Source of the DNA: Candidatus Poribacteria bacterium
GTDB taxonomy: Bacteria; Poribacteria; WGA-4E; JAJDTR01
DNA length: 64,000 nt
Assembly: GCA_028820655.1 (NCBI GenBank)
Contig: JAPPIK010000014.1
Span: 62,001 to 126,000 of the forward strand
Reading direction: 5' to 3'
The first letter of the stretch is position 1; each line of letters opens with the position of its first letter. The notes beneath the pieces are model-generated. The model worked only from the letters and a program-made list of their open reading frames with translations. It searched no databases and was not told the origin of the DNA. Position numbers and translations under genes: made by a program. Positions 2,522 to 55,832 of this stretch are shown here, in pieces.

Positions 2522-2938
2522 ATGTTAATGCCCAAACGGGTGTTACACCGTAAAGTACAACGAGGAAAGCGGCGCGGACAACCCTATCGCGGATCGCAAA
2601 TTAATTTTGGGGAATACGGTCTCCAAAGCATGGAATGTGGGTGGATTACAAGCCGTCAGATCGAGTCCGCCCGGGTCGCGATAACACGCCATGTTCGACG
2701 GGGCGGAAAGGTTTGGATCAAGATTTTTCCGCAGAAGCCCGTCACGAAAAAACCTGCAGAAACTCGAATGGGAAGTGGAAAAGGGCCGCCTGAATACTGG
2801 GTGGCGGTAGTTAAACCCGGGCGTGTGTTGTACGAGTTGAGCGGCGTTCCTATCGAAGAAGCTAAGGAAGCGATGCGGCTTGCTTCGCACAAATTGCCGC
2901 TTAAAACAAAGTTCATAAGCAGGGGCGGAGATTATTGA
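2522..2938 (+). CDS. rplP: 50S ribosomal protein L16
   Basis: Large-subunit protein near the A-site and peptidyl-transferase centre. The 138-residue product begins [15 protein letters not shown] and carries the conserved [23 protein letters not shown] region. ATG at 2522 follows AAGGAG (2508-2513) with normal spacing; the GTG at 2513 lies inside the ribosome-binding site and is rejected. It is followed two bases later by rpmC. Confidence 0.96.
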
Positions 2939-2940
2939 GC

Positions 2941-3147
2941 ATGACGGCTAAAGAACTGCGACTTCAGTCTGACGAAGACCTAACTAATGAGCTTTCGAAT
3001 CTTCAAGAAAGTTTATTCAACCAGCGATTTCGAAACATCCTTGGACAACTCGAAGATACATCTCAGTTAAAAAAGGTAAGGAATGATATCGCACGAATCA
3101 AAACAATTCTGAGGGCGCGAGAGCGCGGAATCGAAAGTGCCTCATAG
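2941..3147 (+). CDS. rpmC: 50S ribosomal protein L29
   Basis: Small helical protein at the tunnel exit that helps dock trigger factor and SRP. The 68-residue product starts [14 protein letters not shown] and contains the family signature [34 protein letters not shown]-type helix pair. ATG at 2941 is two bases after the rplP stop, indicating translational coupling. The TTG at 2935 overlaps the rplP stop and is a less likely start. Confidence 0.94.
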
Positions 3148-3171
3148 CGAAAAGCTAAAGAGAGGGTAAGC

Positions 3172-3456
3172 TTGACTCAAGAGAAGCAGGGACACCGGAA
3201 AACTCAAACTGGAGTTGTGATTAGCAACCGGATGGACAAGACCGTCGTAGTAGCCATTACGCGAGCCTACCAACATCCGCTTTATAAGAAAATCGTACGC
3301 CACACGACAAAAGTGTTGGCGCACGACGAACAGAATGCTTGTGCGGCTGGAGATGTGGTCCAGGTCATTGAATCACGCCCTCTTAGTCGCCGAAAAAAAT
3401 GGCGAGTTCGTCAAATCACGACAAAAGTTGAATCGGGTGAATATAAGAGTTCATAG
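3172..3456 (+). CDS. rpsQ: 30S ribosomal protein S17
   Basis: OB-fold primary 16S rRNA-binding protein. The 94-residue product has GVVISNRMDKTVVVAI near the N-terminus and the signature VVQVIESRPLSRRKKWRV. It appears to start at TTG (3172), preceded by GAGAGGG at about 3160-3166; no ATG or GTG is available upstream of the conserved core in this frame. A 97-nt spacer separates it from rplN, the point where the S10 operon gives way to spc-operon genes. Confidence 0.94.
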   Translation: MTQEKQGHRKTQTGVVISNRMDKTVVVAITRAYQHPLYKKIVRHTTKVLAHDEQNACAAGDVVQVIESRPLSRRKKWRVRQITTKVESGEYKSS

Positions 3457-43461: not shown

Positions 43462-44799
43462 TTATCTGCCGGTCTTCACAACCGTATCTATTTGAGTGAC
43501 GGTTCTGAGAATTGATTCCAATTTATCTAGGTCCACCATGTTAGGACCGTCGCACAATGCGTCGTCGGGACGATCATGTACCTCCATAAACAGTGCATCA
43601 ATACCTGCCGCCGCCGCCGCTCTTGCCAGATGTCCTACAAATTCCCGTCGTCCTCCCGAATTTTTGCCTAAACCTCCAGGTTCCTGAACACTGTGGGTAG
43701 CGTCAAAGACTACCGGAAAACCGGTTTTCCTCATGACCGGAAGTGACGTCATATCTACCACCAGATTATTATAGCCGAACGAACTTCCGCGCTCCGTCAG
43801 CAGTATTTGTTCGTTTCCCGTGGACATGATCTTCTCGATGACGTTTGTCATGTCCCATGGCGCCATGAATTGCCCTTTCTTAATTTTAACCGGTTTGTCG
43901 GTTTGCCCTGCCGCTACCAGTAAGTCGGTTTGCCGGCACAGAAACGCGGGAATCTGTAGAACGTCAAGGATTGACGCTGCACGATTAACTTCGTTCGTAG
44001 AATGAACATCCGACAACACAGGTACGTCGATTTCTCTTTGAACTTCCTCTAAAGTCCGAAGCCCCTTCTCACAACCGGGCCCGCGGTAGGAATCAATCGA
44101 TGAGCGATTTGCTTTGTCATAGGAGGACTTGAATATGCACCGAACGCCGGTCTTGTCGGAAATCTTCTTGATTGCTTCCGCCATATGAAGTGCATGGTCG
44201 CGACCTTCAATGACGCAAGGTCCGGCAATCAGCACAAGCGGGAGTCCGCCTCCTATCTTGATATCCCTTACCTGAACGGTTTTTCCCGTCAATTCTGTCT
44301 CTTCGGACGGTATTTCCTTTTCCGAGACTATCAAATCGCATATTTCCCTGACTGCCCCGGCCCCGCCGGGTTTTGCCGTGACATAATCGGCGCAACGTTT
44401 CACTTGGTCGTGTGCATCCGCGACAGCAACGCGGAATCCAACAGTTAAGAGGGCGCCAAGATCTCCTACATCATCACCAATATACAGTGTTTCTTCTGGC
44501 GAAATCTCATGGGTATCAAGCATCTTTTTCAATATCGCAGGTTTGTCGTTGACACCCATATGAACGTCATCTATGTCCAATTCTTGAGCTCGCTTTCGGA
44601 GTGATTCGCTGCCTCGTCCCGAAACGATTGCGGTCCTGATGCCATGTTGTTTGACTTGTTTAAGCCCCTCTCCATCCCGAACATTGAACGCCTTTATCTC
44701 TTCACCTCTGTCCGAGTAGAAGAGTTGTCCGTTCGTCAAAACGCCGTCAACGTCGGTTACCAAGAGTCGAACTTGCGAGAGTCTCTGTATGAAGTTCAT
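43462..44799 (-). CDS. KDO-8-P phosphatase / KDO-8-P synthase fusion (KdsC-KdsA)
   Basis: A 445-residue fusion of two successive enzymes of KDO (LPS inner core) synthesis. Residues 1-165: HAD phosphatase KdsC with the nucleophile motif [10 protein letters not shown] (D16/D18), VSGRGS, Lys87 and GDDVGD (108-113). Linker about 166-183. Residues about 184-445: KdsA, which condenses PEP with arabinose 5-phosphate, with IAGPCVIEG (Cys195), [26 protein letters not shown] (His369), EVH (Glu406) and LCDGPN (Asp417); the Cys/His/Glu/Asp set marks the metal-dependent class. The two activities are encoded in reverse order of reaction. ATG at 44799 is used because the upstream ATG 44829 lies inside the promoter's -10 element. 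Confidence 0.9.
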
Positions 44800-44827
44800 A
44801 ATTGTGCCGTCTACCGTTTTGCGTGAC

Positions 44828-44857
44828 ATTATAGCTGTACGACTGAGTCAAAGTCAA
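44828..44857 (-). promoter_or_regulatory. Sigma70 promoter for kdsCA
   Basis: On the minus strand TTGACT (44857-44852) and TATAAT (44833-44828) are separated by 18 bp. Transcription begins near the base after the ATG at 44829, which rules out that ATG and supports the start at 44799. Confidence 0.7.
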
Positions 44858-51895: not shown

Positions 51896-52798
51896 TCACG
51901 CCCAGACGAAGATTTCGTCATCCTCCTCAGAATAACCTATGAAAGTCGCTAGGACAGTTCTGGGTGTCTTGCCCTCAACGGGTGCCACTTGGTGAATACA
52001 GCCGCTATTGAAAAGATAGAAATCGCCGGGATTCACCTCGATCTGATAACGAGGAATCTTTTTATCGGCCATGTATTGGAAGTAGGTGCCGTTAGACAGG
52101 TGCTCCTGTACCTCGGGACTCCACACACATTGGTCGATAATGGCGTGGGGGCATCTATCATCATCGGAGGCGTTCTGTATACAGATTAAGCCTGCAAGCT
52201 GATGACGGAAACGAGTAATATCGAAGTTGAAGAGCTTGTCCACAATACTCACATGGTTAATATGCGGGGCGTAACCGTGGCCGGTGTAGTGGATTCGGAA
52301 CACCGCAGGGCCATAGAGGCGGCCATCCGGCTCGCGAGCCACCTTAACCTCTTTTTTGACTGACAAACTGGACAGGGAATCGTAGAGGGCATCTACAGGG
52401 TTGTCATAACCATCGAACAGATGGCGGAACAACTCATGGGTGGCAGCCGAATGTTGCAGGAAATCCTCCTTGTTTTCGGCGTCATTATCCGATATCCGTT
52501 GTCCACCGCGTGTACGATTGACTATGCTCGTGCCGATGTCAATTCGGGTGTTGGATCCCGGTCCTCCCTGGAACTGGTAATTTGCCTCCAAGGCGGGATC
52601 CGGGTTTTCCGGATTTCGCATCATTCCTTGATCGATAAATCGCCGGATTAAACCTGAACAATGATCCGGGTTAAACGCGCCGCGCAAAACAACCCCGGGG
52701 ATGCGGGCATCGGCAATAGCCTGAAGCGGGTCATCTTCATGCGCGAAAACAGTCTCCACGTCGGGTTCCAAAGCTACCCAATCTGTCGTTGATGCCAT
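51896..52798 (-). CDS. Putative Fe(II)/2-oxoglutarate oxygenase-like protein
   Basis: A 300-residue protein with double-stranded beta-helix oxygenase-like signals: HIN (His179-x-Asn181; H-x-N in place of the usual H-x-D), a distal His269 in SGCIHQVAP and Arg280 in TPRTVL. It resembles the PhyH/AspH-like superfamily but is not assigned to a named family, and the Asn in the second metal position is unusual. CAAAGGAG precedes the ATG. Substrate unknown; next to a sulfatase on the same strand. Confidence 0.6.
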   Translation of the reverse strand: MASTTDWVALEPDVETVFAHEDDPLQAIADARIPGVVLRGAFNPDHCSGLIRRFIDQGMMRNPENPDPALEANYQFQGGPGSNTRIDIGTSIVNRTRGGQRISDNDAENKEDFLQHSAATHELFRHLFDGYDNPVDALYDSLSSLSVKKEVKVAREPDGRLYGPAVFRIHYTGHGYAPHINHVSIVDKLFNFDITRFRHQLAGLICIQNASDDDRCPHAIIDQCVWSPEVQEHLSNGTYFQYMADKKIPRYQIEVNPGDFYLFNSGCIHQVAPVEGKTPRTVLATFIGYSEEDDEIFVWA

Positions 52799-53291: not shown

Positions 53292-55832
53292 ATGCACAAC
53301 GATCTTACAACGCTGCGTCGCACAGTTGAAACGATCCTACGATGTAATCTGACGACTGCTATCGGCATTCCGGACAACGAGGAGGCCGAAAGACGAATTG
53401 AACGGTTCTTATACTCAATCGCGAATCGAGTCATCGAGCACGAACTGGCGCAATGGCTTGATCCACAATGGGTGATTCTGGCGGGAGGACAGGGTACTCG
53501 AATCGATCCGACAGGTCGACTAAACAAGACTCTGGATTTATGGTTCGGTGAATCCAACACGCTGCAGGTGTCTCGGAGCTATCTTCCCGGCACGCGCCCG
53601 CATGTCATTGTCGTTAATTCCATGATGGCGGAGCGTTTGGTCACACGCGAGGTGCTGCTTGATGGTGTCATCCCTTCATCGGCGCTCGACATGGAAGCGG
53701 TTAACCGGCTCTGCGGTCGAAACGCAATCCTCTGCGTCCAGCCTGAACAGAACGGCACCGGAGGCGCGCTGCAGACCGCAATTCCCTCCGTCCGGGAGTC
53801 CGGCGCCGAGTGGATCGGTATCGCGTTCGGAGATGAGCCGTTTCTCAATCAAGCAATTTATCTGCAGACTCTCGTTTCTCATTTCATCAACGAAGCGGAT
53901 GTTACGCTTTGCGGCAAAATCCCTGAAACTGTGGTTGACAAGGGCGGGATGTTTTTCGACAAAGACGGTAGGTTTGTCGGCACGAAGGAGTGGAACGAAA
54001 TGACGGACGGGGAGAAATGCGAGATGTCGCGACGACTGGGTTGCGGAGAAGGTTACACGAATACAGGCATTACTCTCATTCGGAGCAGCGCCGCAATTGA
54101 TAGGATAAACCGATTGCAACCGCATGGCAGCAAATCTGAACTTCATCATGTCGATCTGATTCGATACTGTTATGAAGATGGCTTGAAGACACATGCCTAT
54201 ATCTATCGTGAGGAGGCAGTCTCCGGTATCAATAGGTGGTCAAATCTCATCGTAGGGGAAGAAGCATTGTTTGCAAGAACAAGGGTTATGCTGGCTCAGA
54301 AAGGCGTTAGGGTTGACCCTGCCGCTCAGATTACCCTATCAAATGACGACATTCAAATCGGGACCGGGTGCTACTTTCTGGGGCGAATCCATCTCGGCGA
54401 GGGAGTAAGGATTGGAAACTATTGTCGGTTGGAGAATGTCGAGTTGTCAGGAAGAACCGCGGTTGGAGATCTCGTTGGCTTGAAGGATGTGACGGCGGCG
54501 GACACGATCTTCGAATCTAATCCGTTATCCGGAGAGATTGGATCGCCAATTGCCGGGCTGGGAGTATTAAGTAAAATTGAAAACTGTCGTTTTGATCGAG
54601 TGAGAGTTGGAAGGGCAGTGAATCTCAGTTTCGTAAAGGCGGCGGCAACCGTGATTCCGGCTGGCATGTCAATCAACAATCGAGAATTGGGAGTCCCTAA
54701 TTCCTCGAATTCACGCATACCCTTGTTTCCGTTAGATACGAGTTCGGATTCGACGGAGGGAGCGTCGGATGCTCTCAGTCAGCTCGTTGGGCACCAGTAT
54801 ATTGCGGGTGCTTACACGTTCGGCGAGATGCGCAACAAACCGGATTGGGAGAACTTGCGCAGGCACGTCCGATCGCATTCCAACGCCGAGTTGATCAGTC
54901 GTGCAACTCGCCATCCCGGTCTGCGCCGTGTCGTGTCAAAGGCAATCGAGGATCTGTTGGAGATGCGAAAAGGGGACGATACATATATCACGGATGAATT
55001 AACCCCCGAGGAGGTATGGGGAGTAATCTTTGAAGTTGTCTCACTCGCCACCGGCAATCCCGACCCGTACCGCAAAGATAAACTGAAAGCAAGACAAACT
55101 GCGCTAGACCTGCTTGGCCAAATCCCCGATTGTGACTGGTCAAAGCGCCTGAAACTCGTTATTGCGGCGAATGTCATAGACTACAGCAGTTCACGGGTCA
55201 TTGGCAAACTCGCGGAGCAGCCTGATCACTTCAACCGCGTATTGCAGGAAGCCGCTTATGTTCCACTTGCGATTGACTGCCTCGAGCAGTTTCAGTCTCT
55301 GGTGATTGAAGACGGCCCCAAACGCCTCGTCTGGCTGGTTGACAACGATGGAGAAGCGGTGTTTGACTTGTCGTTGATTCAGATGCTCGTTCATCTTGGC
55401 CATCAAATAACGATTGTCGGAAAAGCGGCTCCCGCCAGCAATGACGCAACTCTGACCGATTTAGAGGAGGTTATCAATTTGCCACCGTTTCAAGATCTTC
55501 GTAGTGCGGTCAACGGCGGGGAGGTTTCGCTGTGTTCTTCCGGTTCCAAGACTGTGGGCACGAATCTCTATCAGGCGACGCCCTCGTTTATGAACGTGTT
55601 GCTTGATTCCGAACTCGTAATTTCAAAAGGACAGGGCAATTACTACACAACGCAGGGGTTAAAGCGCGATACGTTCTATCTGCTGCTTTCCAAAGGAGTG
55701 ACGGCTGAGCGGTTTACGGGTGTGGTGCCGGATTGGAACAAAGTCATCGATGGGTTGATACTTGCGTATGTGCCGGCGGGGACGAGATTGGAAGGTACGC
55801 TTGCGGAGTTTTGCGGGAGGATGCGGGTTTAA
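53292..55832 (+). CDS. Nucleotidyltransferase / left-handed beta-helix / DUF89 phosphatase fusion
   Basis: An 846-residue cytoplasmic protein with three parts. Residues about 55-330: a sugar-nucleotidyltransferase like GlmU/RmlA with LAGGQGTR (63-70), NGTGGA (154-159) and GDEPF (180-184). Residues about 345-470: left-handed beta-helix hexapeptide-like turns (IGTGCYFLGRIHLGEGVRIG). Residues about 535-846: a DUF89 damage-control-phosphatase domain with NPDPYRKDK, AANVIDYSS, the metal motif VDNDGEAVFDLSLI (D684, N685) and ISKGQGNYYTT. The substrate is not assignable. A nucleotidyltransferase with a phosphosugar/metabolite phosphatase in one chain suggests linked activation and proof-reading of a phosphorylated metabolite (inference). 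Confidence 0.8.
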   Translation: MHNDLTTLRRTVETILRCNLTTAIGIPDNEEAERRIERFLYSIANRVIEHELAQWLDPQWVILAGGQGTRIDPTGRLNKTLDLWFGESNTLQVSRSYLPGTRPHVIVVNSMMAERLVTREVLLDGVIPSSALDMEAVNRLCGRNAILCVQPEQNGTGGALQTAIPSVRESGAEWIGIAFGDEPFLNQAIYLQTLVSHFINEADVTLCGKIPETVVDKGGMFFDKDGRFVGTKEWNEMTDGEKCEMSRRLGCGEGYTNTGITLIRSSAAIDRINRLQPHGSKSELHHVDLIRYCYEDGLKTHAYIYREEAVSGINRWSNLIVGEEALFARTRVMLAQKGVRVDPAAQITLSNDDIQIGTGCYFLGRIHLGEGVRIGNYCRLENVELSGRTAVGDLVGLKDVTAADTIFESNPLSGEIGSPIAGLGVLSKIENCRFDRVRVGRAVNLSFVKAAATVIPAGMSINNRELGVPNSSNSRIPLFPLDTSSDSTEGASDALSQLVGHQYIAGAYTFGEMRNKPDWENLRRHVRSHSNAELISRATRHPGLRRVVSKAIEDLLEMRKGDDTYITDELTPEEVWGVIFEVVSLATGNPDPYRKDKLKARQTALDLLGQIPDCDWSKRLKLVIAANVIDYSSSRVIGKLAEQPDHFNRVLQEAAYVPLAIDCLEQFQSLVIEDGPKRLVWLVDNDGEAVFDLSLIQMLVHLGHQITIVGKAAPASNDATLTDLEEVINLPPFQDLRSAVNGGEVSLCSSGSKTVGTNLYQATPSFMNVLLDSELVISKGQGNYYTTQGLKRDTFYLLLSKGVTAERFTGVVPDWNKVIDGLILAYVPAGTRLEGTLAEFCGRMRV

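What the first reader, a model, noticed from the sequence alone, without database searches (positions are those of the whole stretch)
53292..55832. Three-part fusion: sugar nucleotidyltransferase, beta-helix and DUF89 phosphatase
One 846-residue reading frame carries GlmU/RmlA-like LAGGQGTR, GTGGA and GDEPF motifs, then hexapeptide-type helix turns, and then a full-length DUF89 signature set including VDNDGEAVFDLSLI and ISKGQGNYYTT. DUF89 proteins are metabolite-damage phosphatases; a nucleotidyltransferase joined to one suggests that activation and removal of unwanted phosphorylated products are coupled. I know of no standard description of this exact fusion; its substrate cannot be read from sequence.
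Basis: partly seen in the sequence, partly recalled or inferred. Interest (0 to 1): 0.8.

Follow-up and report, generated by a model that had tools for sequence, protein, structure and literature searches.

The report
UDP-GlcNAc-type nucleotidyltransferase fused to phosphatase
Nearly all sponge-associated Poribacteria carry one protein that joins a GlmU-like sugar-nucleotide enzyme to a metabolite-cleaning (DUF89) phosphatase; gene neighbours and the missing normal GlmU suggest that it makes the cell-wall precursor UDP-GlcNAc.

Summary
The 846-aa frame is real and intact. It joins a GlmU-type uridyltransferase domain, a short left-handed beta-helix without the acetyltransferase half, and a DUF89 (ARMT1-like) phosphatase. 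It is not an assembly error: the window is Candidatus Poribacteria, and 78 of 83 genomes of its class carry the fusion or contig-cut pieces of it, single-contig genomes included.

The substrate can be inferred. All GlmU uridyltransferase catalytic residues examined are conserved in 47 rows aligned. None of 85 genomes in the phylum has a GlmU above the curated cut-off, yet MurA, which consumes UDP-GlcNAc, is found in 80. In deep-branching families the fusion sits in an operon with a phosphoglucosamine mutase, the UDP-GlcNAc-binding protein YvcK/GlmR and NagB or NagA. In another genus GlmS follows the mutase and YvcK instead. In the 17 genomes tested for both, GlmS and NagB exclude each other.

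Best reading: the phylum's GlcNAc-1-P uridyltransferase, with an attached phosphatase that limits a pathway phosphoester. The phosphatase site is intact in most members but lost in two lineages, where the transferase site persists. No full-length fusion appeared in about 300 genomes of other phyla. The phosphatase substrate and the acetylation step in many genomes remain unknown; nothing has been assayed.

The parts
53292..55832 (+). Whole gene: NTase - beta-helix - DUF89 fusion, 846 aa
   Evidence: homologues
53292..53456 (+). N-terminal, variable, probably helical extension (res 1-55)
   Evidence: least conserved part of the alignment; helices in a low-confidence model
53457..54281 (+). GlmU-type nucleotidyltransferase domain (res ~56-330); E. 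coli GlmU G14/R18/K25/Q76/G81/D105/E154/N169/N227 equivalents conserved
54303..54671 (+). Short left-handed beta-helix (res ~338-460), without the GlmU acetyltransferase half
   Evidence: Hexapep hit; GlmU match ends at model position 308; alignment
54789..55781 (+). DUF89/ARMT1-like phosphatase domain (res ~500-830)
   Evidence: PF01937 res 575-797; PDB 2g8l, 1xfi, 2ffj
55341..55346 (+). D684-N685, DUF89 signature metal-site pair
   Evidence: conserved in 44 of 46 rows; changed only in L044 and L049
55443..55445 (+). D718, second conserved DUF89 aspartate
55626..55640 (+). K779-GQGN, DUF89 motif

Best explanation
A bifunctional enzyme of the hexosamine route of Poribacteria. The N-terminal domain is the GlcNAc-1-P uridyltransferase (UTP + GlcNAc-1-P -> UDP-GlcNAc + PPi) that replaces the uridyltransferase half of GlmU; the acetyltransferase half is absent and that step must be done in trans. 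The beta-helix is a truncated, probably oligomerising remnant. The DUF89 domain is a metal-dependent phosphatase acting on a phosphoester of the same route (a surplus or wrong hexosamine phosphate, or a nucleotide), so that charging and clearing are tied together. Shown by sequence: anatomy, conserved active-site residues, distribution, operon context. Inferred: the chemistry, the sugar, the phosphatase substrate and the coupling.
For: GlmU uridyltransferase residues conserved in the 46-47 rows covering each position. Best NTase-domain hits are GlmU in NCBIfam and the PDB. GlmU over the cut-off in 0 of 85 phylum genomes, against 9 of 14 controls; the fusion is the top GlmU-like protein in most class genomes. 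MurA in 80/85, and LpxC-FabZ-like and LpxA-like proteins in the own genome (by reading), so UDP-GlcNAc is needed. In f7 the operon is mutase - YvcK - fusion - NagB, with YvcK and fusion overlapping by 4-8 bases; in f8 mutase - YvcK - fusion - NagA. The mutases pass TIGR03990 (phosphoglucosamine mutase), YvcK TIGR01826, NagB TIGR00502, NagA TIGR00221. In genus g5 the order is mutase - YvcK - GlmS. The other NTase hits found in closed genome G012 look like mannose-1-P guanylyltransferase, GHMP-kinase/GalU, a MobA-like and a LicC-like protein. DUF89 site intact in 44 of 46 rows. Precedent: the DUF89 domain of PANK4 restrains the pathway it is fused into (PMC9352595).
Against: No assay. The NTase domain is distant from GlmU (28% identity to E. 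coli over 242 aa) and below its cut-off. In family f2 a 456-464-aa archaeal-GlmU-like protein is a competing candidate, and YvcK/GlmR itself is an accessory uridyltransferase in Listeria (PMC10128056). G040, G041 and the 96%-complete G017 lack the fusion yet have MurA, so other enzymes can serve. In the window's own genome the fusion is not beside pathway genes. The partner acetyltransferase is identified only in some f1/f4 genomes.
Confidence: 0.58

Rival explanations
1. The NTase activates a different sugar-1-phosphate (glucose, galactosamine, a glycan- or antibiotic-specific sugar), and the operon neighbours of f7/f8 are incidental.
For: Similarity to GlmU is distant; in families f1-f4 the gene is not beside hexosamine genes; f2 has an alternative GlmU-like protein.
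Against: Operon with phosphoglucosamine mutase, YvcK, NagB or NagA in two families; single copy and near-universal in the class like a core enzyme; GlmU catalytic residues conserved.
Confidence: 0.22
2. The DUF89 domain is mainly structural or regulatory (a ligand-binding sensor), not a working phosphatase.
For: In G043 and G051 the domain persists in shortened form with the metal-site residues lost while the NTase site is kept.
Against: The catalytic pair and signature motifs are conserved in 44 of 46 rows; the two broken copies lie outside the intact f7 branch, consistent with secondary loss.
Confidence: 0.2
3. UDP-GlcNAc is made mainly by YvcK/GlmR or by the archaeal-GlmU-like protein, and the fusion is an accessory or proof-reading enzyme.
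For: Listeria GlmR makes UDP-GlcNAc in vitro (PMC10128056); YvcK in 77/85 genomes.
Against: No archaeal-GlmU-like full-length protein was seen among the NTase hits of G000 or closed genome G012; GlmR is described as an accessory enzyme in Listeria.
Confidence: 0.2
4. Two adjacent genes joined by a sequencing or assembly error.
For: None found.
Against: Same architecture across the class in 78 genomes (some copies cut by contig ends), several of them single-contig assemblies.
Confidence: 0.01

Closest known systems
GlmU (bifunctional UDP-GlcNAc pyrophosphorylase / GlcN-1-P acetyltransferase; TIGR01173)
   Same: Rossmann-like uridyltransferase domain with the catalytic residues, followed by left-handed beta-helix coils
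   Different: No acetyltransferase half; carries a DUF89 domain instead; N-terminal extension; well below the GlmU cut-off
DUF89 / ARMT1-like damage-control phosphatases (PF01937; nearest solved PH1575, PDB 2g8l)
   Same: DNxGE, NDxT..D and KGQGN motifs; over the Pfam cut-off
   Different: Fused behind an NTase; the N-terminal CxxC stretch of stand-alone relatives (e.g. CYPC, CIPC) is missing
PANK4 and pantothenate kinase-DUF89 fusions
   Same: A biosynthetic-enzyme domain fused to DUF89; the DUF89 domain of PANK4 restrains the pathway (PMC9352595)
   Different: Kinase of CoA synthesis, eukaryotic; in human PANK4 the kinase half is dead, whereas here the NTase half looks intact
YvcK/GlmR (TIGR01826)
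   Same: Operon partner in f7/f8; UDP-GlcNAc-binding and accessory uridyltransferase in Firmicutes (PMC10128056)
   Different: Unrelated CofD fold
Archaeal-type GlmU (TIGR03992)
   Same: NTase plus beta-helix; its acetyltransferase half occurs alone beside glmS in the window's genome
   Different: No DUF89; separate proteins in the same phylum

Membership tests
GlmU | Uridyltransferase catalytic residues (G14, R18, K25, Q76, D105, E154, N169, N227) | tested here: met
   conserved in the aligned rows covering each position
GlmU | C-terminal acetyltransferase beta-helix with its catalytic residues | tested here: not met
   alignment to GlmU stops near position 308; the acetyltransferase segment is absent
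GlmU | Score over the NCBIfam TIGR01173 cut-off (367 bits) | tested here: not met
   68 bits
GlmU | Makes UDP-GlcNAc from GlcNAc-1-P and UTP | not testable with these tools
   needs an assay; operon context supports it
DUF89/ARMT1-like | Match to PF01937 over the cut-off | tested here: met
   115.8 bits against 25
DUF89/ARMT1-like | Signature Asp-Asn pair and second Asp | tested here: met
   D684, N685, D718; changed in L044, L049
DUF89/ARMT1-like | Metal-dependent phosphatase activity | not testable with these tools
   needs an assay
Pantothenate kinase-DUF89 fusions | Pantothenate kinase domain | tested here: not met
   no such domain among Pfam hits

The most novel reading that the evidence does not exclude
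A phylum-wide replacement for GlmU that is also a push-pull valve: one polypeptide makes UDP-GlcNAc and destroys a phosphorylated intermediate of the same route, working with YvcK/GlmR as the gate to cell-wall synthesis, fed by GlmS in some families and by NagB running in reverse in the others.
Probability: 0.3. Interest if true: 0.8.

Novelty: new variant of a known kind. Interest (0 to 1): 0.62.

Why it matters
UDP-GlcNAc synthesis is essential for bacterial walls, and GlmU is a widely studied drug target. Here a phylum with peptidoglycan genes has no recognisable GlmU and instead a conserved enzyme-phosphatase fusion. It gives a concrete bacterial case for a DUF89 phosphatase tied to one pathway, makes the substrate of that DUF89 testable, and, with the complementary GlmS/NagB pattern, suggests an unusual hexosamine route in uncultured sponge symbionts.

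Tried and rejected
AlphaFold2 on the window protein with three permitted relatives gave mean pLDDT 50, too poor for fold comparison; no fold search was run and no structural claim rests on it. Literature: only three papers held DUF89, nucleotidyltransferase and fusion together, none with a term in title or abstract; none was read. The main DUF89 paper (Huang 2016) is not held. Considered and rejected: assembly artefact; acetyltransferase activity of the beta-helix. My first idea, that one acetyltransferase beside glmS serves the whole phylum, failed: it occurs clearly in only 5 genomes of f1/f4, with one weak hit elsewhere.

Full report
Observation. The reading frame 53292-55832 (+) encodes 846 residues without a stop. 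Pfam finds an ARMT1-like (DUF89) domain at 575-797 (E 3e-33), a weak NTP_transf_3 match at 61-204 and a hexapeptide match at 353-381. NCBIfam's best non-DUF89 family is GlmU, aligned over GlmU 4-308, that is the uridyltransferase domain and the first beta-helix coils. In the PDB the protein matches PH1575 (2g8l) and GlmU structures; a nine-row profile raises these to 1e-26 and 5e-16.

Not an artefact. The window lies in a Candidatus Poribacteria genome (79% identity to L022; assembly of 61 contigs). A search of 85 genomes of the phylum gives matches in 80. Two of these (G040, G041, other classes) match only as stand-alone DUF89 proteins, so 78 of 83 genomes of the class hold the fusion or contig-cut pieces of it. 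Four of the five class members without it are at most 81% complete; G017 is 96% complete. Several carriers are single-contig assemblies (G012, G015, G026, G082-G084). A nine-row profile run over 387 genomes, about 300 of them from outside the phylum, found only separate DUF89 or separate NTase matches outside Poribacteria among those listed, no full-length fusion (only the best two candidates per genome were scored). So the fusion looks like a trait of this phylum, but the sampling outside is thin.

Active sites. I aligned 47 fusion rows with E. coli GlmU. Equivalents of L11, G14, G16, R18, K25, Q76, G81, D105, E154, N169, G171, G225 and N227 are the same in every row covering them; T82, G140 and T170 each vary in one or two. 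The acetyltransferase half of GlmU has no counterpart. In the DUF89 part D684, N685 and K779 are kept in 44 of 46 rows and D718 in 45; the exceptions are L044 (G043) and L049 (G051), where the domain is shortened and the site lost while the NTase site is intact. In a tree of the N-terminal part, family f7, whose copies have intact DUF89, is separated with strong support from all other rows, so loss in G043 and G051 is most simply secondary (inner forks are poorly resolved and the root is a midpoint).

Pathway. None of 85 phylum genomes has a GlmU over the curated cut-off, while 9 of 14 control genomes do; the fusion is the best GlmU-like protein in most class genomes, though not in all. MurA, the first peptidoglycan enzyme using UDP-GlcNAc, is present in 80 of 85, and the window's genome also has LpxC-FabZ-like and LpxA-like proteins (named by reading the sequence). 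So UDP-GlcNAc must be made by something else. In f7 genomes G045, G047 and G048 the fusion follows YvcK with a 4-8-base overlap and is followed by NagB; the phosphoglucosamine mutase precedes YvcK in G045 and G047, and also in G049 and G050. In G051 (f8) the order is mutase, YvcK, fusion, NagA. The mutases tested pass the NCBIfam cut-off for archaeal-type GlmM, and YvcK, NagB and NagA pass theirs. In genus g5 of f4 the same mutase-YvcK pair is followed by GlmS. The mutase-YvcK pair is also present in the window's genome (L119, L151). YvcK is found in 77 of 85 genomes.

GlmS and NagB. Among the 17 genomes tested for both, GlmS occurs in G000, G004, G007 and G012 and NagB in the other 13, with no overlap. 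This suggests, but does not show, that NagB makes GlcN-6-P where GlmS is missing. Phylum-wide NagB was found in 73 of 85; GlmS was tested only in the 17.

Competing candidates. Family f2 has a 456-464-aa NTase-beta-helix protein related to archaeal GlmU, with the GxGTR signature changed to GLGRK. No such protein was among the NTase hits I identified in the closed genome G012, which are mannose-1-P guanylyltransferase-like, GHMP-kinase/GalU, MobA-like and LicC-like, nor among those of G000. Listeria GlmR (YvcK) can itself make UDP-GlcNAc (PMC10128056). In the window's genome a 225-aa protein matching the acetyltransferase half of archaeal GlmU sits directly behind glmS, but clear homologues occur in only 5 genomes, so the acetylation step is unsolved elsewhere.

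Role of the phosphatase. DUF89 proteins are metal-dependent phosphatases with proposed metabolite-repair roles (PMC8669784), and the DUF89 domain of PANK4 restrains CoA synthesis by dephosphorylating an intermediate; two conserved aspartates are essential there (PMC9352595). By analogy the domain here would remove a surplus or wrong phosphoester of the hexosamine route; this is inference. From memory, the subfamily around PH1575 was reported to act on nucleotides, which would also fit a UTP-using enzyme. A 3527-aa protein of another phylum joins a CofD/YvcK-like domain and a DUF89 domain (L145), a weak independent hint that the two functions are linked.

Verdict. Observation confirmed; interpretation partly supported and sharpened: a GlmU-replacing uridyltransferase with a fused DUF89 phosphatase, a new variant made of known kinds.

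Noticed in passing
L145 413-10993 (+), genome G311: 3527-aa frame carrying a CofD/YvcK-like domain (res 1470-1905) and a DUF89 domain (2897-3179) in one polypeptide, in another phylum.
   Followed up: partly
17 genomes: GlmS and NagB are mutually exclusive in the genomes tested for both, as if NagB supplied GlcN-6-P where GlmS is missing.
   Followed up: partly
L037 1306-1983 (+), genome G000: 225-aa stand-alone acetyltransferase half of archaeal-type GlmU directly behind glmS.
   Followed up: yes
L083 6351-7745 (+) and relatives in family f2: Archaeal-GlmU-like NTase-beta-helix protein with an altered GxGTR signature (GLGRKVWP), next to a bioD-like gene.
   Followed up: partly
L090 13175-15103 (-); L086 5149-7080 (+): GHMP sugar kinase fused to a GalU-like uridylyltransferase, 642-643 aa.
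   Followed up: no
window 43462-44829 (-): HAD (KdsC-like) phosphatase fused to a DAHP-synthetase-family, probably KdsA, enzyme, 455 aa.
   Followed up: partly
window 51896-52798 (-): WelO5-like (carrier-independent halogenase family) protein upstream of the fusion, on the other strand; whether it halogenates was not checked.
   Followed up: no
L044 6957-9032 (-); L049 3230-5350 (+): Fusion homologues with decayed DUF89 site and intact NTase site.
   Followed up: yes
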